Origin: Verrucomicrobiales bacterium | GTDB lineage: Bacteria > Verrucomicrobiota > Verrucomicrobiia > Limisphaerales > UBA1096 | Direction of reading: 5' to 3' | Assembly (NCBI GenBank): GCA_002686755.1 | Contig: NYYJ01000181.1 | Coordinates: 1 to 41,284 of the forward strand | Length of the DNA: 41,284 nucleotides | Shown here: positions 7,879 to 40,643 of the stretch, in pieces | Layout of the letters: each line of letters begins with the position of its first letter | Numbering within the stretch: the stretch's first letter is position 1 | Program-made: the position numbers and the translations under genes | The notes under the pieces: generated by a model | Databases searched by the model: none | Told to the model about the DNA's origin: nothing | Seen by the model: the letters and a program-made list of their open reading frames with translations, nothing else

Positions 7879-7901
7879 GCCTTTAACGGCGAAAGCGTTA
7901 A

Positions 7902-8287: not shown

Positions 8288-8320
8288 ACCCGCACCGATT
8301 AGTTCGAGTGCGGGTTTTTT
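8288..8320 (+). terminator. Rho-independent terminator without an obvious upstream gene
   Basis: ACCCGCAC (8288-8295) pairs with GTGCGGGT (8308-8315), with a partly self-complementary 12-base loop, followed by TTTTTT to 8320 on the + strand. On the - strand no T-run follows, so it does not serve the neighbouring - strand gene. No + strand ORF of note lies between 8157 and 8288, so it may end a short untranslated RNA. Confidence 0.6.
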
Positions 8321-8324
8321 CTTG

Positions 8325-8681: not shown

Positions 8682-11321
8682 ATGAAACGAACCCTCCTCT
8701 TTTTTGCCGCCGCCCTTTCGCTTGGCCAAGCGCACTTGGCCAAGGCGGAACAACATGTCCACGGTATCCAGTGCGGGCACGCCGCCAGCATCTGGGCCAG
8801 CATCGACTCGCCGTCGCAGCGCTACGCTCCAGATCGGGCGGTGGACATCCAGCACTTCGACCTCGACGTCACGCCGGACTTCAAAAACCGGCGCGTGTCC
8901 GGCAAGGCGTCGTTCACGTTTCAGCCGATCCTGAAGCCACTTGGCCAACTGCGACTCGACGCGCACGACCTCGAGATTCACACGGTCACCGGCAGCGCCG
9001 GGATCACGGCGTGGCAAAACACCGACCGCGCGTTGATCGTCACCTTCGCCAAGCCGATCTCCCCGACGTCACAGGCCAAGCTCACCGTCACCTACGAGGC
9101 TGAGCCGAAAAAAGGTCTCTACTTTCGCACGCCGGAGATGGGGTACAACCCCGGCGACACTCACATCTGGACCCAGGGTGAACCGATCGAGGCGCGGCAC
9201 TGGTTCCCGTGCTTCGACGCGCCGAACGAGTTTTTCACATCGACCATGACCTGCCGCGTGCCGGACGGCATGACCGTTCTTTCCAACGGCCGCAAAGTCT
9301 CCGACGCGGTCGACGAGAAAACCAAGCTGCGCGTGATCAAGTGGAGCCAGGAAAAGCCGCACGTCAATTATCTCATCACGCTTGTCGCCGGTCACTTCAA
9401 GCGGCTCGAGGAAAAACACGGCGACCTGTCGATGTCATTCTGGGCGGCTCCGTCCGACTTCGCCAACGCCGCCAACTCGTTCCGTCACACGAAGGAGTGC
9501 ATGGAGTATTTTGAGGCGGAAATCGGCGTGCCGTATCCGTGGGCCAAGTACGACCAGGTCACCGTGCAGGATTTCAACTGGGGAGGCATGGAGAACACCA
9601 GCATCAGCACACTCAACGCCTCGACCCTGTTCAGCAGCGAGACGGAAAACATCCGGAGCAGCCAGGGGCTGATGGCGCACGAATTGGCGCACCAATGGTT
9701 CGGCGACCTCGTCACCTGCAAGGACTGGAGCCAGCTTTGGCTCAACGAGGGATTCGCCACCTACTACACGCACCTGTTCGCCGGGCACAAGGACGGCATC
9801 GACGAGTTCCACTACGGTCTGTACCGCGACCAAAAACGCCTCACGAGCCGCTCTAACGACACCGCACCGATGGTCAACCGCGACTATCAAATCCCGGAGG
9901 ACATGTTCCGCAAATACGGTTTTCTGTCTTACACCAAGGGCAGCTGGATCCTGCACATGCTCCGCTCGCAGCTTGGGCCAGACCTGTTTCGCAAATGCGT
10001 CAAGACCTACCTCGAGCGGCATCGCCACGGCAACGTCGTCACCGAGGATCTGCGCTCGATCATCGAGGAACATTCCGGCCGGTCGTTCGACCGCTTTTTT
10101 GACCAGTACGTTTTCCACGCGCACCATCCGGAATTGAAGATCGCCTACGCGTGGGACGAGAAAGCCAAGCTGGCCAAGATCAGCGTGCAGCAGACGCAAA
10201 AGATCGACGACAACATCCTGCTTTTTCACGTGCCGTTGCCGGTACGTTTCAAGATCGACGGCCAGGCGGTCGACCACACCCTGCCGATCACCAAGCTCGC
10301 CGAGGACTACTACTTCCCCCTGGCCAAGGCGCCGCAAATCGTCCGCATCGACCCCGGCCTCACCCTGTTGGCCAAGATCACCTTCACCCCGCCAACCGCG
10401 CAGCTTCACGCGCAGTTGGCCGACGCCTCCGACGCGCTGGGCCGCCAACTCGCCGTTGAGCACTTGGCCAAGCGCAAGGACAAAACCACCGTCGAAAAAC
10501 TGACGCACGTACTGCGCAACGATCCGTTTTACGGCGTCCGCATCGCCGCTTCGCGGGCACTACGAGGCATTGCCACCGATGCCACCTTGGCCGTGTTGAT
10601 CGACTCGGTCGACCAGCCCAACGCCAAGGTGCGGCAACAGGTCATCGGCGACATCGCCACCCAATACAAACCAGCCGCCTTGGGCGCGCTCAAGCAGAGC
10701 CTGGACAGCGAGAAAAATCCGGCCATCCGCGCCCGCATCATCAGCGGCCTCACCGGGCATGACGACAAGCAGGCGCGCAAGCTGATCGACGCGGCGCTTG
10801 GCTCCGACTCGTTCCGCCACCAACTCGCCGACGCCGCCGTGAGCGCGCTGCGCAAACAGGATCGGCCGGCCAACATCGCCAAGATTCGCGCCGCGCTGGA
10901 GAATGACGGGGCCAAGTTCACCACCCGCGGCTACGCCGGCGCCCTAGGCGCGCTGGGTCACCTTGGCCGCAACCAGAAAAACAAGGCCAAGCTGCGCGAG
11001 TTCCTCGTCGGACACGTGAACAGTCCCAAGCGCCGGGTCGCCCTTGGCGCCATCGACGCGCTTGGCCAACTCGGCGATCCCCGGGCCATCTCCGTGCTGG
11101 AGAAACTCACCGGCGCAGCCGAGGACGATCCCGCCCGAAAAGCCGCCGAGCAGGCGATCGAGAAACTACGCGCGGCCCGCAAGCCGGCCGACGACTACAA
11201 AAATCTTCGCAAGGAAGTCACCAACCTGAAACAAGCCAACTCCAAGCTGACGAAGGAGTTGGGTGACTTAAAAAAACGCTTTGACGCCACGCTCGGCGAC
11301 AAAAAGAGGTCTGAGAAATAA
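8682..11321 (+). CDS. Secreted M1-family zinc aminopeptidase with C-terminal HEAT repeats
   Basis: The 879-residue product has a signal peptide, an M1 peptidase N-domain, the exopeptidase motif GGMEN (residues 301-305), and the zinc site HELAH...E (His333, His337, Glu356; HExxH-x18-E). The family removes N-terminal amino acids from peptides. Residues about 590-840 are Ala/Leu-rich HEAT-like repeats, and the last 35 residues are a Lys/Leu coiled coil. The start ATG 8682 follows TTAGGAAA, a plausible ribosome site. The TTGGCCAA palindrome occurs six times: two copies fall in the signal peptide (SLGQAHLAKA), the others at 8941, 10368, 10464 and 11062, read as LGQ or LAK. High GC codon use contrasts sharply with the upstream genes. 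Confidence 0.93.
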   Translation: MKRTLLFFAAALSLGQAHLAKAEQHVHGIQCGHAASIWASIDSPSQRYAPDRAVDIQHFDLDVTPDFKNRRVSGKASFTFQPILKPLGQLRLDAHDLEIHTVTGSAGITAWQNTDRALIVTFAKPISPTSQAKLTVTYEAEPKKGLYFRTPEMGYNPGDTHIWTQGEPIEARHWFPCFDAPNEFFTSTMTCRVPDGMTVLSNGRKVSDAVDEKTKLRVIKWSQEKPHVNYLITLVAGHFKRLEEKHGDLSMSFWAAPSDFANAANSFRHTKECMEYFEAEIGVPYPWAKYDQVTVQDFNWGGMENTSISTLNASTLFSSETENIRSSQGLMAHELAHQWFGDLVTCKDWSQLWLNEGFATYYTHLFAGHKDGIDEFHYGLYRDQKRLTSRSNDTAPMVNRDYQIPEDMFRKYGFLSYTKGSWILHMLRSQLGPDLFRKCVKTYLERHRHGNVVTEDLRSIIEEHSGRSFDRFFDQYVFHAHHPELKIAYAWDEKAKLAKISVQQTQKIDDNILLFHVPLPVRFKIDGQAVDHTLPITKLAEDYYFPLAKAPQIVRIDPGLTLLAKITFTPPTAQLHAQLADASDALGRQLAVEHLAKRKDKTTVEKLTHVLRNDPFYGVRIAASRALRGIATDATLAVLIDSVDQPNAKVRQQVIGDIATQYKPAALGALKQSLDSEKNPAIRARIISGLTGHDDKQARKLIDAALGSDSFRHQLADAAVSALRKQDRPANIAKIRAALENDGAKFTTRGYAGALGALGHLGRNQKNKAKLREFLVGHVNSPKRRVALGAIDALGQLGDPRAISVLEKLTGAAEDDPARKAAEQAIEKLRAARKPADDYKNLRKEVTNLKQANSKLTKELGDLKKRFDATLGDKKRSEK

Positions 11322-11914: not shown

Positions 11915-12199
11915 ATAACCGCTTGGCCAAGCGCGTGTCGGTTACTTCTCCCAGCGGGAGAAGGTGGCCGCAGGCCGGATGAGGGAGAATGGGAAGTTGT
12001 TTTTCGAGGCTGCCCCGGCTTGGCCAAGCGCTCTCCCTCTCCCGCTTGGAGAGGGAACCGGTTCATTCGTCCTTGGGCATTCCTTGTTCGGTGTTCGATA
12101 TTGATACCGCTTGAGCCTTTTGAATGACGAATCTCGAACAAGGAATGTCCTAATCCCAATCCGCACTCTCCCGCTGAACGTGCCGGATTGGCCAAGCGC
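11915..12199. repeat. Intergenic cluster of palindromes and hairpins
   Basis: No gene is visible here. The stretch holds the full palindrome at 11920-11933 and 12018-12029 and a half-degenerate copy at 12188. A hairpin CTTCTCCC/GGGAGAAG (11945-11952/11956-11963) is followed by GGTGGCCGCAGGCCGGATGA, a type of intergenic repeat familiar from many genomes. CCCTCTCC/GGAGAGGG (12035-12042/12048-12055) forms a second hairpin, and CATTCCTTGTTCG/CGAACAAGGAATG (12078-12090/12135-12147) a perfect 13-bp inverted repeat around 44 bases. The region lies between a + strand terminator and the end of a - strand gene, so it is a transcriptional dead zone where repeats can accumulate. Confidence 0.75.
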
Positions 12200-14845: not shown

Positions 14846-15622
14846 TCATTCCCAGATGCCCTGCTCCTGGAGTTGCTTCTCCGCCTGTTCGGCCCAGCCA
14901 CGGTTGGCGGCGGGGCTGGCCGGGCTGGGATGCAGCACGCGGCCAATTTTCACGTCCGCTTGGCCAAGCACCTCCGCCGCCTTTTTCTCCGCGAACCCGC
15001 CGACGGCCACCAGCCATTCCGGTTGCACGATTTCCACGACCTTGGCCAAGTGCGCGTTGCAGATGGCCTCAAGCGGCCCGGTCTCGGCGGCAGGCAGCTT
15101 GTCCGGCGTGCGGTTGCGGCCGGTCTCCTCGAGGAAGGCCAAGGGACAATAATTCACGACAAAGTGATCGGCAAAAAACGCCTCCGGTTGGACAAACTTT
15201 TCGGCGAAGAATCCCCAGAACCGTCGGCCGCTCACCTCGCTGCGCGGGCAGTCAAGCCCCAATACGGGACGCTTCGGATGCTCGTTTGTCGGCTTGCCGA
15301 TCGGCGCGTCGATGCGCAGCCAGTCGCGCACCGCCGCCACCTCACCGAACGGCACGCCAACCTGCGCCATGCCAAACGGCCCCGGGTTCATGCCGAGAAA
15401 TAACGCGCGCTTGGCCCCGCCGCCGTACCGGCGGAGGAACTGCTCATGCGCCGCCCAAGCGTAATCAAGCGGGTTGTACACGCACTCCACCGGCGGCCCG
15501 AAGTTCAATCGGTTGACGGCATCCCGCAATTCGGCAGCGGCGGCAACAAGCGGAGAGAGGTCGGCTGTGGTCGGCACGCGGGGGTTATAGTCGCGAAGCC
15601 CCCGCTTGGCCAAGGTTAGCAT
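14846..15622 (-). CDS. SMUG1-type single-strand-selective uracil-DNA glycosylase
   Basis: The 258-residue enzyme removes uracil and oxidised pyrimidines from DNA in base-excision repair. The SMUG1 active-site signature is FLGMNPGPFGMAQVGVPFGE, followed by HPKRPVLGLDCPRSEVSG and FWGFF; the C-terminal HPSPASPAANRGW carries the catalytic-loop His. Length matches SMUG1. The start at ATG 15622 puts a palindrome copy in codons 3-6 (TLAKR); a GTG at about 15577 is a possible later start. Two more palindrome copies at 14960 and 15042 read as LGQA and LAK. Confidence 0.92.
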   Translation of the reverse strand: MLTLAKRGLRDYNPRVPTTADLSPLVAAAAELRDAVNRLNFGPPVECVYNPLDYAWAAHEQFLRRYGGGAKRALFLGMNPGPFGMAQVGVPFGEVAAVRDWLRIDAPIGKPTNEHPKRPVLGLDCPRSEVSGRRFWGFFAEKFVQPEAFFADHFVVNYCPLAFLEETGRNRTPDKLPAAETGPLEAICNAHLAKVVEIVQPEWLVAVGGFAEKKAAEVLGQADVKIGRVLHPSPASPAANRGWAEQAEKQLQEQGIWE

Positions 15623-17572: not shown

Positions 17573-18448
17573 ATGTTTTTGGCAACGACACTGCTCAGCG
17601 CGGCGCTTGGCCAAGCGGCCGACATCCGACTGACCGTCGTGCAGGCTGAACCCTTGAAACTTTCGTGGCATACGGCCCCAGTCACCCGACCTGACTCGGT
17701 CCAAATCATTCCCGACACCCAGCTCGAAATATCGACCGATCTCACCCATTGGCAGCCACTTGGCCAAGCGCAAACCGGAGGGCTCCGCACCATGCCGGAA
17801 ACCGTCAACCACACCATCCAATCCGCCGCCAAGGCCCGGTATTTTCGCGTCCGCTCACAGGTCACCCTGCCAAAAGCCAGCCTGGCCAATCACAGCCTCA
17901 TCGCAGCCGACCTGCGAGGCGCTGATCTGCGAGAGGCCAATCTCGCCCATGCCGATCTTGCCTTGGCCAACCTCGATGGCGCGAACCTCGCCGGCGCCAA
18001 TCTCACCGGCGCGAATCTGGCCGAGGCCATACTCGGCAAAGCCGACTTCACCGATGCCGACCTCACCGGCGCAACGATCGCCCCATGGCATCACTACCCA
18101 GAGGTGGTTTATCACAACACCACCCTGCCGGACGGCACCGTGAAAACCGACTCGCCCGAGCGGCAGTTGCTCGTCCAGTTGTATGTCGACAGTGCGCCGG
18201 AGGTGATCTTGGCCGGCCGCGATTTTTCCGGATGGGACCTGCGCGGCGTCGAGTTGCAAAAGCGCGACCTGACGAATTGCAGCTTCACCGGGACCGACCT
18301 GCGTAACACCAAGCTCGACGGGGCGAGCCTCGACGGGGCGAACCTAACGCGCGCCAACCTGCGGGGCGCGACCGGTTTCACGCTAGCCGAGCACGAAGAC
18401 GTGGTCTTGCACCAAACCACCCTCCCCGACGGCACGATCAGCGACTGA
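17573..18448 (+). CDS. Secreted pentapeptide-repeat protein
   Basis: The 291-residue product starts at ATG 17573, after GGGGAGGATTA, and has a signal peptide (FLATTLLSAALGQA). Residues about 45-110 contain a module 'LEISTDLTHWQPL...YFRVRS' that also occurs in two other secreted proteins of this window. Residues about 115-165 and 220-270 are pentapeptide repeats (A(D/N)L-x-x; LRGADLREANLAHADLALAN) expected to form right-handed quadrilateral helices. Two near-identical TTLPDGT(V/I) segments follow each repeat block, pointing to an internal duplication. Palindrome copies at 17607, 17760 and 17963 read as LGQA, LGQA and LAN. Role unknown. Confidence 0.88.
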   Translation: MFLATTLLSAALGQAADIRLTVVQAEPLKLSWHTAPVTRPDSVQIIPDTQLEISTDLTHWQPLGQAQTGGLRTMPETVNHTIQSAAKARYFRVRSQVTLPKASLANHSLIAADLRGADLREANLAHADLALANLDGANLAGANLTGANLAEAILGKADFTDADLTGATIAPWHHYPEVVYHNTTLPDGTVKTDSPERQLLVQLYVDSAPEVILAGRDFSGWDLRGVELQKRDLTNCSFTGTDLRNTKLDGASLDGANLTRANLRGATGFTLAEHEDVVLHQTTLPDGTISD

Positions 18449-18456
18449 AGTAAGGC

Positions 18457-19857
18457 TCAATCGTCGAGCCATGTGAATTGAACGGCGTCGGCTTCTCCGG
18501 TCAGGTGAACTGCGCGGTCGCCGACGAGCAGGTGCATCTCCTGTCCGGCCTCCTGCGGCCCGGCGAGGTTTGGCAGCAGTCCGCCGTAATGATTACCGCG
18601 AAACCGATGCGGATCGACCTCGCGCTGCCATCCGCCCGCATCGTCCTGAAACAGCCGCAGGCCCACGCTTGCGCCGTGCAGCAGGATGCCCCGCGCCGCT
18701 GACTTCGATTCTCCGTCGAACACGAACCGGTTGCCCTCCACCACGAATCCGCGCGTGTGATCCCAGAGCCGCAGGCCGTTGTGCCAATACGCAAACCGCG
18801 GCGCATGCGGTGCGATTAACCGGAAGGTGTTGTCCCTGATCACAAACGCCTTGCCGTCGTTGACGCTGCCGCCGCCGACGCAGGCGAAGAACCGATTGTC
18901 GCGGATCACCACACCGCGGTTGCCGCCGGTGTCGAAGTTGAACCCGATGCCGCAGTTCGTGACGGTGTTTTCGTAAAACTCCGCGCGCTGCAGGAACGCC
19001 CCGCCGAACGCAATACCGTTGGGGATGTTCCGAATCTCGTTGTGATGCACCCGTACCTGAACCGTGCCGTCCAAGTCCGCGCCCCGGTGGCTGACCATGA
19101 TCCCGGTGCAGTACGGCCAGGCAGTCCCGGTGCTTGGCCCGCGGACAAAGTCCTCCACCACGCAATGCCGGATCTCGATGACCGAGTCGCGATAGCCGGG
19201 CAGGTTGGCCCCGTCGCCCATGCCGGAAATGATGCGGATTGGGAACACCTCACGCCACGACGGTCGCCCACCCACCGCGCCGAACCGACTAACCCGCACC
19301 CGTTCCACCAGCGTCTGCCTGGCCAGCAGGTCAATGCCGGACGCCTTCTTGAGGATCGGGCCAAGCGCCGCCTTCATGACGCGCCAATTGCAGTCGAGCG
19401 ACAAGTCCGCGACGCGGATGTTGTCAAAATCACGACTGGCCTGCCGCTGCGGCCCCCAACCGCCGGCGATCACGCTGTGATAGGCGGACTTGATTTTCCG
19501 GTGACCCGGCCCCGGCACGAGCTTGAGGGTCGTCGTACCGATGCCGGCCCCGACGATGTGCCAGCGGGGACGCAGCCGGATGCCGTGCGTCTCGTAGTCG
19601 CCCGGCAAAAAGCGCAGTACCAGCCCGTCGCCGTAATGACCCTGCTCCCCGGCCAAGCGATCAAGCGCCTGGCCAAGCTTGGCCGCGGTCGAGGCGTCGA
19701 CCGGCTCGGACGCTGTCGAGCCGTCCCCGAAGGATGCACCTACCGCCGCAAGCCAAACCGTGCGCTCCGGCGCGCTTGGCCAAGCGATCTCCTGCGCCCG
19801 GGCGCTTGGCCAAGCGGCGGCCAAGGCAACGACACAGAGTTGGAACAGCAATCGCAT
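18457..19857 (-). CDS. Secreted right-handed parallel beta-helix protein
   Basis: The 466-residue product starts at ATG 19857 with a signal peptide (LLFQLCVVALAAAWPSARAQ); a longer frame to 19917 exists but dilutes it. The opening GASFGDGSTASEPVDAST resembles the start of pectate-lyase-like beta-helix proteins, and later segments are the usual ladders (VEIRHCVVEDF, VRVHHNEIRNIPNGI, FYENTVTNCGIGFNF, VIRDNRFFAC, VEGNRFVFDG). Such proteins bind or cleave polysaccharides; no catalytic set is evident. Two palindromes (19806, 19776) fall in the first 30 codons and both read as AWPS; a third lies just upstream at 19866. Confidence 0.88.
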   Translation of the reverse strand: MRLLFQLCVVALAAAWPSARAQEIAWPSAPERTVWLAAVGASFGDGSTASEPVDASTAAKLGQALDRLAGEQGHYGDGLVLRFLPGDYETHGIRLRPRWHIVGAGIGTTTLKLVPGPGHRKIKSAYHSVIAGGWGPQRQASRDFDNIRVADLSLDCNWRVMKAALGPILKKASGIDLLARQTLVERVRVSRFGAVGGRPSWREVFPIRIISGMGDGANLPGYRDSVIEIRHCVVEDFVRGPSTGTAWPYCTGIMVSHRGADLDGTVQVRVHHNEIRNIPNGIAFGGAFLQRAEFYENTVTNCGIGFNFDTGGNRGVVIRDNRFFACVGGGSVNDGKAFVIRDNTFRLIAPHAPRFAYWHNGLRLWDHTRGFVVEGNRFVFDGESKSAARGILLHGASVGLRLFQDDAGGWQREVDPHRFRGNHYGGLLPNLAGPQEAGQEMHLLVGDRAVHLTGEADAVQFTWLDD

Positions 19858-19965
19858 CACTACGCTTGGCCAAGCTTGGCCCCGGGCCAATCGTTCGTCA
19901 ATCGAGCGCCGAACCACGACGCGAAAGCGTGACTTTTTTGGTTGAGGCAGCGTACTCTCCGCGTG

Positions 19966-20990: not shown

Positions 20991-22931
20991 GTGAACAGGA
21001 GGACACTGGACAGTTTTTGCGAGCGGGGCATCGTCGGGCTGGTGCTTGCCGCGCTGGTCTTCTCGGCGCTGGCCACGGGGGCGGTCCGGGCGCTGGAGTT
21101 CGCGGTGGCCGAGTGGCTCGTGGCGGGCGCGGCCCTGCTGTGGGTGGCCCGTCTCTGGCTGGAGCCCCGGCGCAACCGGCTGCTGTTCCCGCCGGTCGGC
21201 GTCTGCCTGCTGCTGTTTCTCGCGTACGCGCTGTTTCACTACATGCAGGCGGATGTCGAGTACACGGCCCGCGGAGAGGTGCTGCGCCTGCTGGTCTACG
21301 CGCTGCTGTTTTTCGTGGCGCTGAACAACCTGCACAAGTCGGAGTGGACGCAGTTGACGCTGTACGTGCTGGTGTTCACCGGCGTGGCGATCGCCTTGTA
21401 CGGTATCGTGCAGGTGATCGCGGGGCTGGATCACGTGTGGCACTTCACCCGGCCGGAACAGTACCGGGGGCGCGGCTCGGGGACGTTCATCAACCCGAAT
21501 CATTTTGCCGGGTACCTGGGGATGCTGCTGCCGCTCTGCCTTGCGGCTGTGTTGACCGGCCGGATCAGCCAGCCGATACGCATCCTGCTGGGCTACTCGG
21601 CGCTGCTGCTGCTGGGCGGCGTGGCGGTGAGTATGTCGCGCGGCGCCTGGGTCTCAACCACCCTGACCTTGGCCGCAGTCATCGGCGTGTTGGGCTGGCG
21701 GAAACAGTTTCGAATGCGGGGCATCCTGCTGACCTGCCTGGCGCTGGGCCTCGCGGGAGGGTTCCTGTTGAACTCGAACATTGCACAAAACCGTCTGCGG
21801 GATGCGAACACACCGGGCACCGCGGGTCACGTCGGCTCGCGCATCGAGTTGTGGGGAGCAGCGGCGAAGGTGTGGCAGGAGGAAAAATTGCTCGGCGTTG
21901 GGCCGGGGCATTTCGACCATCGATTCCCGGCGCACCGGCCGGAGCGGCTGCAGTCGCGCCCGGTACGGGTGCACAACGATTATCTCAACACGCTGGTGGA
22001 CTGGGGGCTGGCTGGCATGCTGCTGGCCGGGCTGATGCTTGGGACAATGGTTTCCGGGATTGTTCGAAGCTGGAAATATTCGCAGCGCACCTCGAGCAGC
22101 CTCTCGGCCAAGACCAGCAACCGCTCGGCCTTCGTGCTGGGCAGCACGGCGGGGCTTGGCTCGATCGCGCTGCATTCGTTTACTGACTTCAATCTGCACA
22201 TCCCCTCAAACGCCATGCTGGCCGCGACACTGGCGGGGCTGCTGGCGGCGTACATCCGGTTCGCCACGGAGCGGTACTGGGTGGCCGTGCGGCTGCCGAT
22301 GCGCCTGGCCGTGACTGCGGTGGTCGGCAGCGTGTCGATCCTGCTGATGAGCCAGGCGCTTGGCCAAGCGCGGGAAATCGCCCGGCTCAACGCCTCGCAG
22401 GAGGCGGAAACCTTTCCCGAGCAGGTCACGGAGCTTGAACAGGCGATGGCGGTCGAGCCGAACAACTTCGAGACCGCCGCGTTGCTGGGGGAGATTCACC
22501 GACGGCGCGCCGGGGATGCCGGTGCGGCCGCGCGACGGGTCGAACTGAAAAAGGCGGCTGGCTGGCTGAACCGGGCGATCGCGCTCAACAAGTACGACGC
22601 CTATTCGCACGCGCGGCTGGGCATGACGCTGGCCCAGCTTGGCCAAGCGGAAAAGGCCGGGGAATATTTTGCCGAGGCAGAAAAACTCGATCCCAACGGC
22701 TACCTGACCGTGACCAACGTCGGCTGGCATAAGATGCACATCGGCGAATTCGCGGAGGCCAAGCGGTACTTTGAACGAGTGTCCCCGCTGGACGACCCAG
22801 CCACCGAGGAGGATGAGCGGAAAAACGGCCTCGTGGCGGATCGGTCCGAACAAATCGCCAAAGACTTGGCCCGGCACATCCGGGAGTCCTACCTACCGTA
22901 CATCAACGAGCAGTTGAAAAACCCCGAGTAA
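20991..22931 (+). CDS. O-antigen ligase/Wzy-like polytopic membrane protein with TPR tail
   Basis: The 646-residue protein starts at GTG 20991. Residues 1-455 contain about ten membrane segments with the O-antigen ligase/polymerase pattern (FHYMQADVEYTARGEVLRLL, RGSGTFINPNHFAGYLGMLL, then LGVGPGHFDHRFPAHRP, VHNDYLNTLVDWG). These match the Wzy_C/WaaL family that joins sugar repeat units at the periplasmic face. Residues about 470-646 form tetratricopeptide repeats. Palindromes at 22360 and 22639 read as LGQA. The partner genes kdsB and the sugar transferase are 8-11 kb downstream. Confidence 0.88.
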   Translation: MNRRTLDSFCERGIVGLVLAALVFSALATGAVRALEFAVAEWLVAGAALLWVARLWLEPRRNRLLFPPVGVCLLLFLAYALFHYMQADVEYTARGEVLRLLVYALLFFVALNNLHKSEWTQLTLYVLVFTGVAIALYGIVQVIAGLDHVWHFTRPEQYRGRGSGTFINPNHFAGYLGMLLPLCLAAVLTGRISQPIRILLGYSALLLLGGVAVSMSRGAWVSTTLTLAAVIGVLGWRKQFRMRGILLTCLALGLAGGFLLNSNIAQNRLRDANTPGTAGHVGSRIELWGAAAKVWQEEKLLGVGPGHFDHRFPAHRPERLQSRPVRVHNDYLNTLVDWGLAGMLLAGLMLGTMVSGIVRSWKYSQRTSSSLSAKTSNRSAFVLGSTAGLGSIALHSFTDFNLHIPSNAMLAATLAGLLAAYIRFATERYWVAVRLPMRLAVTAVVGSVSILLMSQALGQAREIARLNASQEAETFPEQVTELEQAMAVEPNNFETAALLGEIHRRRAGDAGAAARRVELKKAAGWLNRAIALNKYDAYSHARLGMTLAQLGQAEKAGEYFAEAEKLDPNGYLTVTNVGWHKMHIGEFAEAKRYFERVSPLDDPATEEDERKNGLVADRSEQIAKDLARHIRESYLPYINEQLKNPE

Positions 22932-22945: not shown

Positions 22946-25900
22946 CTACTCGTCTTCCCAGTCGATTTTCACCGCGCCGTAATTGCCCAGCGGCAGCCAC
23001 AGGCCGGACTCGACGCTGCCGGCCGCGTTATCCACATTGAACCAGAGGCAGCCGTCCAGCCCACCCGTTGCCTCAACGGAGAGTGACGCCGGGTTTGTGG
23101 TGTCGAACAAGTGCAGCGTGCGGTTGTTGTCCTGCCCCACGAGGCGACCGCCGATGTCGGCGAGATACCGGATGCCGAGCTCCAGCTCGATCTCGTCCAG
23201 CAACGCAAACTGCGCCGTCTCGTCGAGCGCGAGCGACTGCAAATAATAGGTTGTGACATACCGCGTGCCGTCCTCCTCGTTCGGTTTCACCTCCTCCTGC
23301 TCGGTGTACGCCATGTACAGCGTGCCGTCGCTGGCAACCTTGTGCGACTGCGGCCAGCGTTGCGGCTGCTCGATTGAATCGACGAGGTACGCCTCCAGCC
23401 CGTCGTACGAGCTGGCGTCGATCCAGTTGCCGTCCCACTTGTGCTCGTCCGTCCAGTGCGAGCCCTGCGTGTAAAGCAGTGCGCCGCCGTGCGACGTGCC
23501 GATCAGCGTGCCTGGGATCGGTGTCGCGTCGCGCACGACCGGGTTGAACATGTCGGAGTAGTCGACCACGTGCAGCTCGTAACTGGTGATCCAGTATCCG
23601 CGCGGCCTGGGTTGCGGCTTGGGTTCGTCGGGGTTCGGCTTGTCGGGATCTGGTTCGGGATCGTTGGGATCCGGCTCGTCGTCCCCGCCCTGTTCCTCCT
23701 CCTCCGGTTCCGGCTGGACGTATTCCGAGTGCTGGCTGCTGAGGTAGACGAGGCCGTTGTCGTTAAGGATCGCCTCGCTGAAATTCCAGCGGTTGGCGTA
23801 CCGCAGTTTTTGATCGTCGTTTTCCTCAACCGAGAGGTTGACGGAGGAAGCCAGGCTCGGCTTGGCGGCGTCACCAACGTCGAAACATATCAGTTGACCC
23901 GCGCTCCCGCCGTAATAGCCGGGCCACCAGGCATCGCCAGCCACATCAATGGCGTCGATCATCGGTCCGCCCCAGCCCCAGTAGCGGTAACCGCCGGCGT
24001 TGGACCACAGCAGCTTGCCGGCACTTGGCCAATTGGCCTTGAACTGGTTACTCCAGCCCATGTTCTTGTCCACCAAAGCCAATTCCCCGATCACGGTCAA
24101 CTCCGGCAGCTTGGCCAAGTCGATCACCGTCAGGAACACGTTGGGCTTTGGCTCCTCCGGCTCCGGTTCCTCCTCGTTGCCACCCTCATCGTCATTACCC
24201 TCTTCTGGTTTCTCAGGAACTGGTTTGGGATTGGCCGACTGGAACGCCTCTGTCTGCAGCAGGTACAGCTTGTCGCCGTTCACCGAGGCGCCGGATAGGT
24301 AGGCGGTCCGCGGCAGCACCACGCGGCCCAGCGCGGTATCGGGATCCCCCGGCGCAGCGACGCGGATCGACGGCCCGCCCTGCTCGCCAAAATACCAGTT
24401 TGAGCCCTTGGCCAACTGCAGCAGGTAGTCGCCGGTCGGGATGACCTGATCGACCGTCCAAGCCAGCTCGACCTCGCTCTTCACAACCGGGTCGTCGCGG
24501 TCGGTCGCATCCACCGTCAGCAGTTCCTTGCCGGAGATCGACAGGATGTAATCCTGATACTCCGTGGCACGGCGCGGCTGCAGCGCGTGTGCGATGACCC
24601 CGCGCTTGACCAGCGTCTTCTCGTTTAGATCGATGATCTGGACGTTCTTCACGTAGCCACCCTCCTCGCGGCCCTGATACGGCACGAGGATCAGCCCGGC
24701 GTGCGGCAGCACGGTGAACGCCTTCTCGTCGTACTGCGCCTCGCTCCACGACCAACGGTCGCCCATGGTGACCTTGTCGAACAGCTTCGGCTGGGTGACA
24801 TCGCTCACGTCGAACAGCGACACGGCGACACGGTTGCCATTGTTTGTGTCGTCCACGCCGATTGACACCAGCCGGTCGCCCAGTGGCTGGATGTAAGTGG
24901 ACCAGCCCGGCACCTCCAGTTCTCCCTTGATCTCCGGGTTGCGCGGGTCGGACAGGTCGACGATCCACAACGGATCGATCCGCTCGTAGGTCACGATATA
25001 CACCCGGTCGGCGTCGAAGCGCGTGGCAAACAGCCGCTCGCCCTTGGCCAGGCTCACCTCGCCCAGCGCCTTGGGCTTGTGCGGATTGGCCAGACTGAAC
25101 GTCTCAAGCGTGGTCAGCCAGCGGTTGCGATTGTCATCACTATTACGGTTCAATTCCTCCGAGATGACTGTGAGTGTGTCGCCGCTCAAGCGCATCTTGA
25201 ATTTGTCCGCCACGCGGCCGGCGGTGCGGATGGTGGCCGCCTCCTTCATCGTGCCGTTCGGTGCGGAGATGTCGATGCAGCGCAGATCGGTCTTGTAATA
25301 CTGTTTCACGACCGCCGTGGAGACGAACAGGAACTGATCCGTGGCATAGATGTCGTTGTTGTAGCCACTGTAAAACAACGTATCACGCTCGACCGGCTTG
25401 GCCGGGATTTTCAGGTCGAACGACGTCACCTGCGTGCCGTGCTCCCACCGAACGTAGGTGTCGCCAGTCTTTGGGTTGATCGTCTCCCGTTGGACATACG
25501 TTTGCGAGGCGATGTAAAGCGCGGTGCCGACGAGGCGGCTTTCGCGGATGTAACCCTTCACCGGCACGCTGGAGGCAATGACCGGCGTGTCGGCGGTGAC
25601 GTCAACAATGATCGCCTGGCTCTCGGCGTCGTTGCCCCACCAGTTGCAGCCGTCGCGGGCGAGCAGAATCACGTGGTCGTCGCCCAGCGTGTACATCTGC
25701 TCGCCGGCGGCCGGCATCGGCAGCACGCCGCGAATGACCGGGTTGTCCTTGTCCTTCAGGTCGATCACCTGCAGGCCGCGGAGAGTGTTGAAAAAATACA
25801 GCGTGTCGTTGTGAATGCTCCAAATGTCGGACTCAACAACATCGCGTGGGGCACCATCGTCAGCCTTGCCAGCGTCGGCTGTCTCGGCCACAGAATCGAA

Positions 25901-26374: not shown

Positions 26375-26694
26375 GATACGGTTCCGTGAAAAAAGCCCCT
26401 TCCCGGATTGCCTCTTGCGGCAAACAAACACCCGCTTGGCCAAGCCGTCAAGGCGAGGAGCCGGCACCAACCCCGGCGTGATTCGATTGATTAGTTCAAT
26501 TGTTTTCATTTTAGTTCCTATTATGTTTGTTATTTATCTTGTTCCCAATGGTTTACGCTTAAAATCCTGCCGGTCATCACAGCTTGCCAATGCGGGAATC
26601 GGCCGCGCCCGCTACCCAACGGGCGCGGCCTCTTTTCTGGTGTGTCCTCAACTGTTAACCAGACCCGATAAATCATCGCTCACTCCTTGCCTTA
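26375..26694. other. Intergenic stretch with palindrome and hairpin
   Basis: This 320-base gap contains one full 12-mer palindrome (26434-26445), an AT-rich stretch (26510-26560) that probably holds the promoter of the - strand beta-propeller gene (CATAAT on the - strand near 26523-26528), and a strong hairpin at 26601-26630. If translation starts at 26509 rather than 26374, the left part is coding. Confidence 0.55.
26601..26638 (+). terminator. Strong GC hairpin, terminator-like
   Basis: GGCCGCGCCCG (26601-26611) pairs perfectly with CGGGCGCGGCC (26620-26630) around an 8-base loop, followed by TCTTTTCT on the + strand. The gene ending next to it (26695) runs on the - strand, where no T-run follows. 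It may still stop that transcript by stem strength. Confidence 0.5.
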
Positions 26695-28662
26695 TTAGTC
26701 TCCGACCGTGAACTCGATGCTCAGCAGCCCAAATTGCCCCTCGTTCGACTCGCTCACATTGGCTTGGACGAACGCCGTCGTGCCGTTTTCGGTTGTGGCC
26801 CGTAGCTCGATAAAATAGGTGGTGGCGTTCCGCGACTTGGCCCCGGTGACGGCGACGATTCGCTCCAGTTTCAAGCCGTGCTCGGCCGCCGGTTCCTGGC
26901 CGAGGACAAACTCGGCCAAGCGCTTGGCCAAAGGCGAACCGGCCTCGACCGGGTTCAACTCGACACGCCCCGGGGTGGCGGAAGCAAAATCGGCGTCACC
27001 GGCTTCAGGTGCCTCCCTGAATTCAAGCGGCACGACGGTGATCCCCAACTCCGACTGCGTGAATGCCGTCAGCAGTTCAGTCTGGTTCGTCTCCGGGTTC
27101 GTTCCCACCTCGGCAAACACCGTCGCCGCCTCGCCCTCCGGCGTCGCGAGACTCAAGACCAGATGATCCGACGCCGATCCCGTCTCCCTGCTGGAAACCA
27201 CCTCGACCAGTGACCAGTTTTTCCCGGTGCGTTCATTCAGGTAAGCCAACGCGATCCCGGCGGATGCAGCGGAGCGGTCCGCGTTCACCGCACCCGGCGC
27301 GAGGGACAGGTCTTCATCGAACTCGACCGACTTCGTGCGACGAATCATCTCCCACCGGTCATCCACGTTGATCTTCGTCACGAATGGCATTTTTTGAACG
27401 CCGGCCTCGCCGAGTTCGGCGTAGACCGAAACCGGCTGCTGCTGCTCGTTTTTGCCGCGCAACTCGACCAAATATTGGGGGCCGAAAATAGGCGGCAACA
27501 ATCGTACAACCGAATCCACGGTCGCCCCGGTGACGTTGCGGCCGTCGATGTTCAAGCGCGCCAGCACGGTCTTGGCCAGGTTCTGCGCCAGTTGGCTGCC
27601 GGGTTCGATCGGCTTGCCTCCGCTGTAATCGAACACGCCCGGCGAAGCCAACTCCCTCGGGGTCAACCGGACGCGGTAAAACAGCGCCGCAGGCCGGTTC
27701 TCCCGGGAGTCGACCCAGTCGACGAATTCGCCTTGGCCGTCGATTTCCTCGACCGTGCTCCAGTTGGCCAAGTCGGCCGAGACCTGCACGGACAAGGTGA
27801 AGTTGTTGGCCCCGAACAACCGGATTTTCACCGGCGCGTCCGGCTCCGGGCCAAGGAAGATCGGCGGCAGCGCAAAGATGGGCGGGAGGCCGTTGACCAC
27901 CGAGTCGCCGGGAAACAGTTGAATCGAAAACCGCTCAACCGAGGCCGCCACGATCGGGCGCTTGGCCAAGCCGGCCCTGCGGATGATGTCCAGTTCGTAT
28001 CCCGACCGATCCGCCTTGGCCGGGAGCGGCTCGGCCAGATACACCAGCGTGTGGCCGGCCGCCTCATCGCGTTGGACGCGAAACCGGTCCCGGTCCGCGC
28101 CCTCGAGCGCGATCTCCGACCCCAAGCTGTCGGTGAACACCACGCCGTGCGGCAGCCACGTCTCCAGGTTCAATCCGTGGGCGGCCGGCTTGGCCGTGTC
28201 GTAAAAAGCATTTTCCGGAACCTGAACGGAATACTCGATCAACTCCTCGGGCAAGAAGGCCGGTGAGGCCGCGCTTGGCTTGAGGGAGAGTTGATGCCCG
28301 GTCGCCCCTGCGGTCAGGATGACGGCCCCCTCCGGCCCCTTGGCCAAGGCGTACTGGCGGGAGATGAGATCCACCGAAAAGACGGCATCCTCGCTCGACA
28401 AGGAACGAAACCGGATCGTGCTATCGGCGGGATCGACCGACCAGACGCCGCGGCCGTCTCCTCCGGCGGAGGTCAGCAACGGGTAAGGCGAATAAAACCG
28501 GCCCTCCGGGGAGATGTACAGGACGACCTCCCTGCCAAGGGAGTCGGTGCCCTTCCACACCGCCGGCTCCTCGAAAAACTGGGCCTTGGCCAAGCCGGAG
28601 CAGAGGCAGAACAGGGATACCGCCATGCCGAACGCCCTTCGACTTTGTTGGCTCAAAACCAT
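26695..28662 (-). CDS. Large secreted protein of unknown function
   Basis: The 655-residue product has a signal peptide (FGMAVSLFCLCSGLAKAQ); ATG 28626 is an alternative start just before the hydrophobic core. The middle (about residues 275-335) contains LSVQVSADLANWSTVEEI followed by LFYRVRLTP, the same 'sDLxxWxxv...FRV' module seen in the pentapeptide protein and in the protein at the right edge. The second half carries three related segments of about 90 residues ending in VELRGKNEQQQ-, LSLATPEGEA- and IELRATTENG-type strands, each preceded by a basic-acidic helix, suggesting an internal triplication. No family recognised. Five palindrome copies lie in it (26934, 27764, 27962, 28340, 28586), all in the LAK/LAN frame. 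Confidence 0.78.
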   Translation of the reverse strand: MVLSQQSRRAFGMAVSLFCLCSGLAKAQFFEEPAVWKGTDSLGREVVLYISPEGRFYSPYPLLTSAGGDGRGVWSVDPADSTIRFRSLSSEDAVFSVDLISRQYALAKGPEGAVILTAGATGHQLSLKPSAASPAFLPEELIEYSVQVPENAFYDTAKPAAHGLNLETWLPHGVVFTDSLGSEIALEGADRDRFRVQRDEAAGHTLVYLAEPLPAKADRSGYELDIIRRAGLAKRPIVAASVERFSIQLFPGDSVVNGLPPIFALPPIFLGPEPDAPVKIRLFGANNFTLSVQVSADLANWSTVEEIDGQGEFVDWVDSRENRPAALFYRVRLTPRELASPGVFDYSGGKPIEPGSQLAQNLAKTVLARLNIDGRNVTGATVDSVVRLLPPIFGPQYLVELRGKNEQQQPVSVYAELGEAGVQKMPFVTKINVDDRWEMIRRTKSVEFDEDLSLAPGAVNADRSAASAGIALAYLNERTGKNWSLVEVVSSRETGSASDHLVLSLATPEGEAATVFAEVGTNPETNQTELLTAFTQSELGITVVPLEFREAPEAGDADFASATPGRVELNPVEAGSPLAKRLAEFVLGQEPAAEHGLKLERIVAVTGAKSRNATTYFIELRATTENGTTAFVQANVSESNEGQFGLLSIEFTVGD

Positions 28663-29552: not shown

Positions 29553-29577
29553 CGCTTGGCCAAGCGCTTGGCCAAGC
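29553..29577. repeat. Two abutting copies of the 12-mer palindrome
   Basis: GCTTGGCCAAGC occurs at 29554-29565 and again directly at 29566-29577 between the TetR gene and the end of the transglutaminase-like gene. The pair is itself a larger palindrome and could form an extended hairpin or cruciform between the convergent genes, but no T-run follows. Confidence 0.95.
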
Positions 29578-30652: not shown

Positions 30653-33006
<2,354 letters not shown>

Positions 33007-33776: not shown

Positions 33777-35171
33777 ATGCTGCGCAACCAACGACGAGTC
33801 CAGACAGGCATCCACAAGGTGCTCGACGGATTGGTTTTTGCCATCAGCCTTTGGCTGGCGCACGGAATGCGCCAGGTGCTGCACTTCGAGGTGTTCGGCG
33901 GTACGGCTGAGATCGCACCCTTTGAGGGGGCGTACGTCTGGATCAGCCTCCTGCTTCTGTTTGTGGCCCCTTTCATCCTGGACACGCAGGGGTTCTACTC
34001 GCGATCCGCTTGGCCAAGCCGGGCACAAACCGTCTGGCCATTGGCCAAGGCCTCCCTGCTCATCACCCTGCTCATTATCACCGTGATGTTCGTCTTCAAG
34101 ATTCAGTTGACCCGATCGGTGATCCTGATTTTTGCCGTGCTCAGCATCGCGCTGGCCTGGGCCAAGGAGGAGGCATCCATTCGCTGGCAGCGGCGGCGCC
34201 TGACCCGCGCCGACCTGCAGAAACGAATCATCCTCCTCGGCTCGCCGGAGGAAACGCAGGCCATGCTCGGTCGCATCGACGATGCCAACGACACGAGCTA
34301 CCGCGTCGTGCTGCAGTTCAACATCGACCGCGACCCGATCGAGCGCCTCCTGCGCCTGATGCACGAGCATTCCGCCAACGTCGTCCTTATCAACGCCGGC
34401 CACACCAAGTTCGACCTGATCGAGCAGGTCATCAACGCCTGCGAACTCGAAGGTGTCGAGGTGTGGCTTGCCGCCGATTTTTTCAACACGCAGATCGCGC
34501 GCACGGCGGTGGATGATTTTCACGGCGTCCCGCTGCTGGTGTTCCACTCCGCGCCGGCCGCCTCGCTGCAGGGCTTGGCCAAGCAGATGATCGACTTCGC
34601 CGGGGCGCTGGCCCTGCTCGTGCTGCTTTCGCCGGTGCTGCTGGGATGCGCCCTGCTGGTGAAGATCACCTCGCCCGGCCCGATCCTGTTCCGCCAAAAA
34701 CGCAGTGGCATCAACGGCCGCCCGTTCACCATGTACAAGTTCCGCTCGATGGCCACCAACGCCGAGCAGCGCAAACACGAGCTGGCGGCAATGAACGAGA
34801 TGAGCGGTCCGGTGTTCAAGGTCGCCAACGACCCACGCATCACGCCGGTCGGCCGGTTCCTGCGGCGGTTCAGCCTCGACGAGTTGCCCCAGTTGTTCAA
34901 CGTACTCCAAGGTGCCATGAGCCTCGTCGGTCCGCGGCCGCTGCCGGTGGACGAAACCAAGCGCTTCGAGGACCTTGCCCACCGCCGCCGCCTCAGCGTC
35001 AAGCCGGGCCTCACCTGCTTGTGGCAGATCAGCGGCCGCAACGAGGTGAAGGAATTCTCCGACTGGGTGCGCCTCGATCTCGAGTACATCGACAACTGGT
35101 CGCTTTGGCTCGACATCAAGATCCTCTTTCGCACCATCCCGGTCGTGTTCATCGGCACCGGCGCGAAGTGA
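33777..35171 (+). CDS. Polyprenyl-phosphate sugar phosphotransferase (exopolysaccharide initiation)
   Basis: The 464-residue membrane protein starts at ATG 33777. Four to five N-terminal membrane segments precede a CoA-binding-like cytosolic domain (RIILLGSPEETQAMLGRI), another membrane helix (ALALLVLLSPVLLGCALLV) and the catalytic domain of bacterial sugar transferases (SPGPILFRQKRSGINGRPF, MYKFRSM, VANDPRITPVGRFLRR, SLDELPQLFNVLQGAMSLVG, PRP). The enzyme places the first sugar phosphate on undecaprenyl phosphate for O-antigen or exopolysaccharide. Palindromes at 34011, 34041 and 34575 read as AWPS, LAK and LAK. Confidence 0.95.
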   Translation: MLRNQRRVQTGIHKVLDGLVFAISLWLAHGMRQVLHFEVFGGTAEIAPFEGAYVWISLLLLFVAPFILDTQGFYSRSAWPSRAQTVWPLAKASLLITLLIITVMFVFKIQLTRSVILIFAVLSIALAWAKEEASIRWQRRRLTRADLQKRIILLGSPEETQAMLGRIDDANDTSYRVVLQFNIDRDPIERLLRLMHEHSANVVLINAGHTKFDLIEQVINACELEGVEVWLAADFFNTQIARTAVDDFHGVPLLVFHSAPAASLQGLAKQMIDFAGALALLVLLSPVLLGCALLVKITSPGPILFRQKRSGINGRPFTMYKFRSMATNAEQRKHELAAMNEMSGPVFKVANDPRITPVGRFLRRFSLDELPQLFNVLQGAMSLVGPRPLPVDETKRFEDLAHRRRLSVKPGLTCLWQISGRNEVKEFSDWVRLDLEYIDNWSLWLDIKILFRTIPVVFIGTGAK

Positions 35172-35236: not shown

Positions 35237-35905
35237 ATGGAGTTGTTATTCATCGGATTCGCGGCGGGATTCGTCCACGTGCTCAGCGGGGCAGACCACT
35301 TGGCCGCGCTGGCGCCATTTACCGCACGCCGCGAACAGCAGGCCGCGTGGCGGCTGGGCCTCCATTGGGGCATCGGCCACGCCGGCGGGGTGGCGTTGAT
35401 CGGCCTGCTCGTCTGGCTGCTCAAGGGCACCGCCGCCGCCGAGTGGCTCTCCAGCGGCGCGGAATGGCTGGTCGGCGCGGTGCTGGTGGCGGTCGGCGCG
35501 CTGGGCATCCACTCCCTGCTGCGGCATCGCGTCCACACCCACGAGCACGATCACTTCGGCATTCGGCACACGCACATCCACGCGCACCTTGGCCAAGCGG
35601 ACCCTGCCGCCAGTCATCACCACTCCCATGCCGCGCTGGGTATCGGCCTGCTGCACGGCGCCGCTGGGGGTACTCATCTCTGGGTGGTGCTGCCCACATT
35701 GGCCATCGCCAGTTTCGGCGGCGTGGCCCTTTACCTCGCCGCCTACGCGCTGGCCACAGTCGCGGCGATGACCCTGTTCTCCGCCGGACTGGGCCGCTTG
35801 GCCAAGCGCTTGGCCAACCGCAGCCCACGGCTTGGTCACGGCTTCGGCCTGGCCTGCTGCTCCGCCTCCCTGCTCGTCGGCGGCTACTGGCTGCTCGCCG
35901 GTTGA
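35237..35905 (+). CDS. NicO/UreH-like metal transporter
   Basis: The 222-residue polytopic protein has membrane segments with HVLSGADHLAALAPF, GLHWGIGHAGGVALIGLLVW and GIGLLHGAAGGTHLWVVLPT. A His-rich loop (residues about 95-135, with HTHEHDH, HTHIHAHLG and SHHHSH) fits nickel/cobalt or other divalent metal handling. Similar proteins belong to the NicO/RcnA and UreH-like group. The metal and direction are uncertain. Two palindrome copies at 35798 and 35810 lie 12 bases apart near the C-terminus and give RLAKRLANR. Confidence 0.85.
   Translation: MELLFIGFAAGFVHVLSGADHLAALAPFTARREQQAAWRLGLHWGIGHAGGVALIGLLVWLLKGTAAAEWLSSGAEWLVGAVLVAVGALGIHSLLRHRVHTHEHDHFGIRHTHIHAHLGQADPAASHHHSHAALGIGLLHGAAGGTHLWVVLPTLAIASFGGVALYLAAYALATVAAMTLFSAGLGRLAKRLANRSPRLGHGFGLACCSASLLVGGYWLLAG
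35796..35817. repeat. Tandem palindrome copies inside the transporter gene
   Basis: GCTTGGCCAAGC at 35796-35807 is followed without a gap by GCTTGGCCAA at 35808-35817. The arrangement matches the abutting pair at 29554-29577, but here it is inside coding sequence. Confidence 0.95.
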
Positions 35906-36945: not shown

Positions 36946-37666
36946 TCCGACGCACAACCGATTCCCGCTTGGCCAAGCTCTGGCGCTGCTGGCGATCGCC
37001 GGGCTCCTCGGCGGTTGCGGCGGTGACCCCTTGGCCAAGCCCGGCTTTCACCAAGTCAATGAACGCCACCTGTTTGTCAACAGCCTCGGCATGCAGTTCG
37101 TCCCGCTGCCCGGCGGCGACGCCTGGATCAGCGTCTGGGAGACCCGCGTTGCCGACTACGCCGCCTTTGCCCGCGCCACCACCAACGGCTGGCAGTCCGC
37201 CTGGTTTCAGGACACTGACCGCCACCCCGCCGTCAATGTCTCGTGGGACGACGCTCAAGGCTTCTGCGCCTGGCTCAGCCAGCGCGAACGGGCAACCGGC
37301 CTGCTCGCCGACCACGAAGGCTACCGCCTGCCGACCTCCGACGAATGGACCGCCGCGCTTGGCCAAGCGCAGCCAGCCGACACCGCCAACTTCGGCCCGA
37401 AAACCGGCAGCGACAATTTCGAGCGCACCAGCCCGGTCGGCTCGTTCCCCGGCAACACGCTGGGCCTGCACGACCTGCGTGGCAATGCCTGGGAATGGTG
37501 CACCGCCTGGCCAAGCGAGGAGGGCATCGGCCGCATCCTGCGCGGCGGCGGCTGGCGCGACGACTCCCCCGACCTGCTCTACCCCGCCCGCGAACTCCTC
37601 GTCACCCCCAAGAGCGCCACCGAAGACTACGGCTTCCGCTGTATCCTCGTCCTCAAGGCGCGGTAA
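36938..37666 (+). CDS. FGE/SUMF1-like lipoprotein lacking catalytic cysteines
   Basis: The 242-residue product has a lipoprotein signal (ALLAIAGLLGGCGG) and an FGE-sulfatase domain (SLGMQFVPLPGGDAWISVWE, HPAVNVSWDDAQGFCAWLSQ, YRLPTSDEWTAAL, GNAWEWC, RILRGGGW, YGFRC). True formylglycine-generating enzymes have two Cys in the segment after RGG; here it reads RGGGWRDDSPDLLYPARELL with none. It is therefore probably a binding or structural member of the fold. Overlap with the upstream gene implies cotranscription. Palindromes at 36969, 37031 and 37369 read as LGQA, LAK and LGQA. Confidence 0.85.
   Translation: MPDPTHNRFPLGQALALLAIAGLLGGCGGDPLAKPGFHQVNERHLFVNSLGMQFVPLPGGDAWISVWETRVADYAAFARATTNGWQSAWFQDTDRHPAVNVSWDDAQGFCAWLSQRERATGLLADHEGYRLPTSDEWTAALGQAQPADTANFGPKTGSDNFERTSPVGSFPGNTLGLHDLRGNAWEWCTAWPSEEGIGRILRGGGWRDDSPDLLYPARELLVTPKSATEDYGFRCILVLKAR

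Positions 37667-37784: not shown

Positions 37785-40643
<2,859 letters not shown>

What the first reader, a model, noticed from the sequence alone, without database searches (positions are those of the whole stretch)
19773..19876. Palindromes cluster at signal peptides and other tolerant protein segments
Three copies sit in and just before the beta-helix signal peptide. Others fall in the signal peptides of the M1 peptidase (two), the pentapeptide protein, the FGE-like lipoprotein and the 26695-28662 protein, and in the first codons of SMUG1. None was seen in pyrG, prfB, maf or DUF1501. This is what one expects if copies spread wherever protein function permits.
Basis: partly seen in the sequence, partly recalled or inferred. 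Interest (0 to 1): 0.5.

Follow-up and report, generated by a model that had tools for sequence, protein, structure and literature searches.

The report
Genome-wide palindrome tracking DNA-uptake genes
A 14-letter palindrome occurs about a thousand times in the genome of an uncultured bacterium, sits where genes tolerate it and just after gene ends, and fades in the related lineages where genes for taking up DNA were not found, which suggests it may be a recognition tag for swapping DNA.

Summary
The three copies of GCTTGGCCAAGC are at the stated place. They belong to a highly iterated palindrome, CGCTTGGCCAAGCG: 24 exact 12-mers in the window (0 expected), 1539 in the 3.5-Mb genome, 6-1837 in all 21 genomes of one Limisphaerales (Verrucomicrobiota) genus, and at most 22 in 272 other genomes of the order.

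But the sharpest hot spot is the 20 bp after stop codons, and most coding copies lie inside proteins. "Copies spread" is wrong beyond codon 40: sites arise in place by point substitution and are then held at DNA level (45% versus 11% identical between two clades).

Two lineages lost most copies independently. ComEC, DprA and ComM were not found above cut-off in those four genomes (0/4 each; 9, 12 and 11 of 17 elsewhere), while MutS was (4/4). Three DNA-methyltransferase families are absent from 20-21 of 21 genomes. Best reading: a palindromic DNA-uptake-type sequence maintained through natural transformation (confidence 0.4); an intracellular protein-binding site is the main rival.

The parts
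8720..8731 (.). exact copy, codons 12-16 of M1 peptidase signal peptide (LGQA)
8735..8744 (.). 10-mer copy, same signal peptide (LAK)
10463..10472 (.). 10-mer copy inside M1 peptidase
11921..11932 (.). exact copy, intergenic
12018..12029 (.). exact copy, intergenic
14958..14969 (.). exact copy inside SMUG1-like glycosylase; in 3 of 4 aligned genomes
15041..15050 (.). 10-mer copy inside SMUG1-like gene
15605..15614 (.). 10-mer copy, codon 2 of SMUG1-like gene
17605..17616 (.). exact copy, codon 10-11 of pentapeptide protein (N-terminal, signal-peptide-like)
17759..17768 (.). 10-mer copy inside pentapeptide protein
19774..19785 (.). exact copy, codon 24 of beta-helix protein (AWPS)
19804..19815 (.). 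exact copy, codon 14 of beta-helix signal peptide (AWPS); shared by G016
19864..19875 (.). exact copy just upstream of the beta-helix start codon
22358..22369 (.). exact copy inside O-antigen ligase/TPR gene; in 4 of 10 aligned genomes
22637..22648 (.). exact copy inside O-antigen ligase/TPR gene; in 7 of 10 aligned genomes
24110..24119 (.). 10-mer copy inside beta-propeller gene
26434..26445 (.). exact copy upstream of beta-propeller gene (inside it if the longer ORF to 26509 is the gene)
27960..27971 (.). exact copy inside the 26695-28626 gene; in 4 of 8 aligned genomes
28339..28348 (.). 10-mer copy inside the 26695-28626 gene
28585..28594 (.). 10-mer copy, codon 10 (signal-peptide-like) of the 26695-28626 gene
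29554..29577 (.). tandem doublet of exact copies (12-bp period) between two convergent genes, within 20 bp of both stop codons
30620..30631 (.). exact copy, intergenic, upstream of kdsB-like gene
30765..30776 (.). exact copy at codon 37 of kdsB-like gene (RLAKR); in 11 of 17 aligned genomes
34008..34019 (.). exact copy inside sugar transferase (AWPS); in 8 of 15 aligned genomes
34573..34584 (.). exact copy inside sugar transferase (LAK); in 7 of 15 aligned genomes
35588..35597 (.). 10-mer copy in DsbD_2-type membrane protein
35796..35807 (.). exact copy in DsbD_2-type membrane protein; in 3 of 9 aligned genomes
36967..36978 (.). exact copy, codon 9-10 of FGE-like lipoprotein (N-terminus/signal peptide)
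37030..37039 (.). 10-mer copy, codon 30 of FGE-like lipoprotein
37357..37368 (.). exact copy inside FGE-like lipoprotein
38915..38926 (.). exact copy in glycine dehydrogenase; in 5 of 12 aligned genomes
38966..38977 (.). exact copy in glycine dehydrogenase; in 4 of 12 aligned genomes
39386..39397 (.). exact copy in glycine dehydrogenase; only G000 of 12 aligned genomes

Best explanation
The palindrome is a genome-wide DNA signal (consensus CGCTTGGCCAAGCG, core TTGGCCAA) of one Limisphaerales genus. Shown here: beyond the protein N-termini it arises in place by point substitution; it favours intergenic DNA just after stop codons, variable protein segments and signal peptides; and it is kept at DNA level, also at synonymous positions. 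On the tree it was ancestral to the genus and largely lost in two separate lineages, and ComEC, DprA and ComM were not found above cut-off in any genome of either. Inferred: the pressure is preferential uptake of conspecific DNA. Competent cells import fragments carrying the palindrome, recombination puts them back, and copies accumulate wherever protein and regulatory function permit, as for Neisseria DUS and Haemophilus USS. When transformation is lost, the copies decay. Inferred further: the receptor reads the palindrome as a dimer or in either orientation.
For: Counts and near-confinement to one genus. Intergenic consensus (C 0.92, G 0.85, C 0.83 outward from TTGG). Few changes at inner positions: one-off variants by position 1-6 are 216, 43, 53, 7, 8, 12 in 902 kb. 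Sequence rather than shape: 261 of 281 stems of 5 bp with a GGCC loop have the arm CGCTT. Substitution origin beyond codon 40. DNA-level maintenance: identical 10-mers 0.448 versus 0.106 for composition-matched controls between clades A and B; given identical amino acids 0.578 versus 0.235; within A 0.790 versus 0.368. Two losses on a 16-gene tree of 20 of the 21 genomes. Competence genes in palindrome-rich versus palindrome-poor genomes: ComEC 9/17 versus 0/4, DprA 12/17 versus 0/4, ComM above cut-off 11/17 versus 0/4; control MutS 15/17 versus 4/4. At least one of the three: 14/17 versus 0/4, hypergeometric p 0.006, not corrected for kinship. Preference for non-coding and unconstrained coding DNA is printed for uptake sequences (PMC1939737, passages), and a bias to gene termini within Pasteurellaceae genes (PMC2346458, part 1 of 3).
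Against: No uptake experiment. Known uptake sequences are not palindromes and, in the passages of PMC1939737, are said not to be biased towards positions downstream of coding sequences, whereas these are. The genomes are 61-93% complete, so absences are uncertain. Three palindrome-rich genomes (G004, G010, G012) show none of the three genes above cut-off (G004 and G010 have ComM fragments; G012, 86% complete, still has 400 copies). G001 and G015 give weak sub-threshold matches to the ComM model (E about 2e-4 to 9e-4). Only two independent losses exist, and both go with lower G+C (51% and 41-43%), so a wider change could have removed both. Copies are not fully gone in the poor genomes: 10 10-mers versus 0.10 expected in the G001 sample.
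Confidence: 0.4

Rival explanations
1. The palindrome is the binding site of an intracellular dimeric DNA-binding protein (nucleoid, recombination or repair protein, Chi-like or nucleoid-occlusion-like), and the sites are selected for that function.
For: Perfect symmetry with a sharp core; near-Poisson spread, 161 5-kb windows with variance 4.42 and mean 3.85; DNA-level maintenance; excess in convergent gaps of 13-40 bp, 20 of 46 gene ends, a shared gap counting for both ends; post-stop peak.
Against: No candidate protein was looked for or found. Many sites differ between species of the genus. Copies collapse in the lineages where ComEC, DprA and ComM were not found while MutS was.
Confidence: 0.35
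2. A cyanobacterial-type HIP: methyltransferase-directed mismatch repair creates and keeps the palindrome (Elhai model).
For: GC-rich palindrome at similar density (TTGGCCAA about 1.0 per kb); substitution origin.
Against: C5 methylases (PF00145) in 1 of 21 genomes, N6/N4 (PF01555) in 0 of 21, Dam-like (PF02086) in 0 of 21, with controls positive in 10, 11 and 4 of 14. Other methyltransferase families were not searched.
Confidence: 0.07
3. A transcription terminator or 3'-end RNA hairpin.
For: Post-stop peak; a 5-bp stem with GGCC loop is possible, -3.5 kcal/mol alone and -18.8 for the doublet.
Against: No T-run excess: TTTT within 25 nt in 10 of 49 versus 42 of 242. Arms rarely vary in a compensated way. 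270 of 417 copies are inside genes.
Confidence: 0.09
4. A mobile palindromic element (REP-like) that inserts copies.
For: High copy number and tandem doublets; gapped N-terminal alignments at some signal-peptide copies.
Against: No conserved unit beyond about 14-16 bp (target duplications were not tested). Copies beyond codon 40 are no more gapped than their genes against relatives.
Confidence: 0.04
5. Passive mutation or codon bias without function.
For: Copy number rises with G+C within the genome (rho 0.37) and between genomes (rho 0.66).
Against: About 0.4 copies expected by composition versus 1539; intergenic consensus; maintenance beyond matched controls; at most 22 copies in 272 other genomes of the order.
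Confidence: 0.05

Closest known systems
HIP1 (GCGATCGC) and alternate HIPs of cyanobacteria (Elhai 2015, PMC4390886; abstract, sections 2.3, 2.6, 3.6 and the first third of section 3 read)
   Same: Perfect GC-rich palindrome at about 1 per kb for the 8-mer core, uneven one-off pattern, patchy loss in some lineages.
   Different: Unrelated sequence, longer (14 bp), in Verrucomicrobiota; the three methyltransferase families searched are nearly all absent; losses go with absence of competence genes in these incomplete genomes.
DNA uptake sequences: Neisseria DUS and Pasteurellaceae USS (PMC2346458 part 1 of 3; PMC1939737 and PMC12616744 passages; PMC7811141, PMC3630211, PMC1626085 search listing only)
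   Same: Hundreds to thousands of short copies, denser in non-coding DNA and in tolerant coding positions; association with competence genes.
   Different: Palindromic, so no orientation; strong bias just after stop codons; another phylum; no uptake test.
REP/BIME extragenic palindromes (recalled)
   Same: Palindromes just after genes.
   Different: As recalled, REPs are longer, extragenic and mobilised; here 270 of 417 sampled copies are in genes and interior ones are made by substitution.

Membership tests
HIP class (Elhai 2015) | Strongly over-represented GC-rich palindrome | tested here: met
HIP class (Elhai 2015) | Copies throughout coding and non-coding DNA (my wording of the class) | tested here: met
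HIP class (Elhai 2015) | A methyltransferase for part of the palindrome in the genome (an association reported for all HIP genomes there) | tested here: not met
   PF00145 1/21, PF01555 0/21, PF02086 0/21; gamma-class and type I families not searched
DNA uptake sequence (DUS/USS) | Hundreds to thousands of copies per genome | tested here: met
   306-1837 12-mers in 17 of 21 genomes
DNA uptake sequence (DUS/USS) | Preference for non-coding and tolerant coding positions | tested here: met
DNA uptake sequence (DUS/USS) | No bias to positions downstream of coding sequences (as stated for known DUES in PMC1939737 passages) | tested here: not met
   71 copies within 20 bp after stops versus 41.5 +/- 4.0
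DNA uptake sequence (DUS/USS) | Carriers have transformation genes; loss goes with decay | tested here: inconclusive
   ComEC, DprA, ComM 9, 12, 11 of 17 versus 0/4 each; two loss events only; incomplete genomes
DNA uptake sequence (DUS/USS) | Non-palindromic, as in known cases | tested here: not met
   perfect palindrome
DNA uptake sequence (DUS/USS) | Copies raise DNA uptake | not testable with these tools
   needs a competent culture
Intrinsic terminator | Hairpin followed by T-run | tested here: not met
   10/49 versus 42/242 with TTTT
REP-like mobile palindrome | Extragenic insertion of whole units | tested here: not met
   270 of 417 in genes; no excess gaps beyond codon 40

The most novel reading that the evidence does not exclude
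A palindromic DNA-uptake sequence in Verrucomicrobiota. Natural transformation has driven a 14-bp palindrome to about a thousand copies in a genome, shaping signal peptides and gene ends, and the palindrome decays wherever competence is lost. By extension cyanobacterial HIP1, at low frequency in several obligate symbionts, could be an uptake sequence too.
Probability: 0.37. Interest if true: 0.9.

Novelty: new variant of a known kind. Interest (0 to 1): 0.7.

Why it matters
The function of highly iterated palindromes is still called a mystery for HIP1 (PMC4390886, section 3.3). Here three DNA-methyltransferase families are nearly absent, and copy number is low in the lineages where transformation genes were not found. 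That makes the uptake hypothesis directly testable, would extend uptake sequences beyond Pasteurellaceae and Neisseriaceae, and shows a DNA-level force rewriting protein segments such as signal peptides.

Tried and rejected
Insertion or transposition: disfavoured beyond codon 40 by orthologous alignments. Terminator: disfavoured for lack of a T-run and of compensated arms. Methyltransferase link: three families searched, one hit in 21 genomes. Mismatch-repair loss: a MutS domain is present in all four palindrome-poor genomes; MutL was not searched. My first gene models skipped ORFs with ambiguous bases and covered only 58-60% of the sample; their genome-wide numbers were discarded and the models repaired; the window tally was redone with the final models. 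The first-30-codon excess is weaker in clade B (10-mer 1.3- to 1.5-fold, 12-mer 1.3- to 1.6-fold). The Fisher test counted copies; one search counts genes and is the one reported.

Searches behind 'not found in print': searches returned no paper; one unrelated paper; seventeen papers, ten listed, none of those listed naming this palindrome or phylum in title or the abstract start shown. Open-licence library only.

Full report
WHAT IS THERE. The stated span holds three exact GCTTGGCCAAGC. The window has 24 exact 12-mers (shuffles 0.00) and 34 CTTGGCCAAG (0.07). The window's genome G000 (3,504,672 bp, 197 contigs, 87% complete) has 988 exact CGCTTGGCCAAGCG, with 0 for the reversed control, and 1539 12-mers (reversed control 3). 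Composition alone predicts about 0.4 12-mers. Around intergenic TTGGCCAA the next bases outward are C 0.92, G 0.85, C 0.83 and then fade (G 0.46), so the unit is a 14-bp palindrome.

WHO HAS IT. pyrG relatives in named records place the organism in Verrucomicrobiota. Matching contig lengths suggest that G017, G007 and G003 are the MAGs CAJWEP01 (ERR599127 bin 44), QOAX01 (MAG 15) and UBA6775. The order name Limisphaerales comes from titles of near outgroups; that ERR599127 is a marine sample is recalled. All 21 genomes of the genus have 12-mers: 17 have 306-1837 ('rich'), and G006 144, G015 13, G005 8, G001 6 ('poor'). Of 272 other genomes of the order, 117 have at least one and the highest has 22 (293 genomes).

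WHERE COPIES SIT. In 902,612 bp of G000 with 689 predicted genes (own codon-usage models), 12-mers occur 270 times in genes (0.342/kb) and 147 times between genes (1.288/kb). Frames are LGQ 136, LAK 123, AWPS 11. G003 gives 0.368 and 0.887/kb. The sharpest peak is after stop codons: 10-mers at 6.9/kb in the first 20 bp against 1.3-1.4/kb further on in G000 (89 hits over 645 gene ends), 7.3 against 1.2-1.7 in G003 (30 hits over 206). Placing copies at random within the same intergenic gaps, each copy counted once, gives 41.5 +/- 4.0, largest 55 of 1000, against 71 observed. Signal-peptide genes have 2.04 10-mers/kb in the first 30 codons, 4.0 times their rest; other genes 0.86, 1.4 times. In G003 the ratios are 3.2 and 0.85 (a hydrophobicity rule, not a trained predictor). 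By genes: 28 of 169 against 36 of 489 (p 8.7e-4), G003 7 of 49 against 7 of 160 (p 0.02). Palindrome-encoded LGQ is 7.5-fold denser there, other LGQ 1.3-fold; for LAK the two do not differ (2.25, 2.18).

HOW COPIES ARISE AND LAST. Orthologous codons show substitution in register, for example glycine dehydrogenase QLGQAV (palindrome in 5 of 12 aligned genomes) against QIGQIV in G001, and kdsB-like RLAKR (11 of 17) against LLSKM in G015. Over 1712 copy-ortholog comparisons (274 distinct coding copies), copies beyond codon 40 have no more gaps than their genes, and their flanks are less conserved than the genes (0.603 against 0.698 versus AT-rich relatives). In the first 40 codons, where the comparator lacks the copy, 35% of copy codons are gapped, so insertion cannot be excluded there. 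Maintenance (beyond codon 40): clade A versus B, 10-mers identical in 0.448 of 402 comparisons against 0.106 of 5880 controls; with identical amino acids 0.578 against 0.235. Within A 0.553 against 0.223 (557 and 8063). A against G006 0.122 versus 0.076, interval including zero, so no maintenance is seen there; A against AT-rich 0.014 versus 0.014 (copies were chosen in one of the pair, so parallel gain also counts, and comparisons share genes and ancestry).

LOSS AND GENE CONTENT. A 16-gene tree of 20 of the 21 genomes (G019 had none of these genes in hand) puts the AT-rich trio beside palindrome-rich clade B (support 99) and G006 beside G016 inside clade A (81; enclosing nodes 99 and 100). 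Two losses with lower G+C is the simplest reading (G006 covers 45% of columns). Detected genes, rich versus poor: ComEC 9/17, 0/4; DprA 12/17, 0/4; ComM above cut-off 11/17, 0/4; MutS 15/17, 4/4; pyrG 15/17, 3/4. At least one of the three: 14/17 against 0/4 (p 0.006 without regard to kinship). G004 and G010 have ComM fragments (G004's with two stops). G001 and G015, and many rich genomes, give weak partial matches to the ComM model near E 1e-4 to 1e-3 that I take for other ATPases. G012, 86% complete with none above cut-off, has the lowest density of the rich genomes (114 per Mb). Methyltransferases: PF00145 1/21, PF01555 0/21, PF02086 0/21, controls positive in 10, 11 and 4 of 14.

READING. 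The pattern is that of a force acting on DNA sequence everywhere and expressed where function allows. Uptake sequences would explain copy number, non-coding bias, tolerance filter, maintenance, absence from odd DNA (no copy in the first 8.6 kb of the window, Poisson p 0.0014; GC 44-54%) and co-loss with competence. The palindromic form and the bias just after stop codons are misfits to known uptake sequences (PMC1939737, passages). An intracellular binding protein remains a serious rival. [quoted passage not shown]

Noticed in passing
window 1-8600: Ankyrin-repeat region of lower G+C (44-54%) without a single palindrome; looks recently acquired or differently evolving.
   Followed up: partly
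G001, G005, G015 (for example L022-L041, L184-L188): One genus spans 41% to 64% G+C in the samples held; the AT-rich clade sits on a long branch.
   Followed up: partly
window 29554-29577; 68 palindromes of the other centre in the G000 sample: Tandem doublets with a 12-bp period make a second palindrome centred on GCGC and a strong hairpin as RNA.
   Followed up: partly
G007:C124, G017:C53, G012:C8: The beta-propeller protein matches in two pieces (about 1-909 and 911-1141) separated by roughly 220-260 bp in one open frame: an insert shared by three genomes.
   Followed up: no
L200 (G009:C53): The only C5 DNA methylase found in the 21 genomes.
   Followed up: no
G009:C11:9913-10518: A second, weaker DprA-like match beside the regular one.
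   Followed up: no
L062: A public MAG contig titled Klebsiella pneumoniae whose pyrG is 76% identical to this verrucomicrobial one; probably a misleading title.
   Followed up: no
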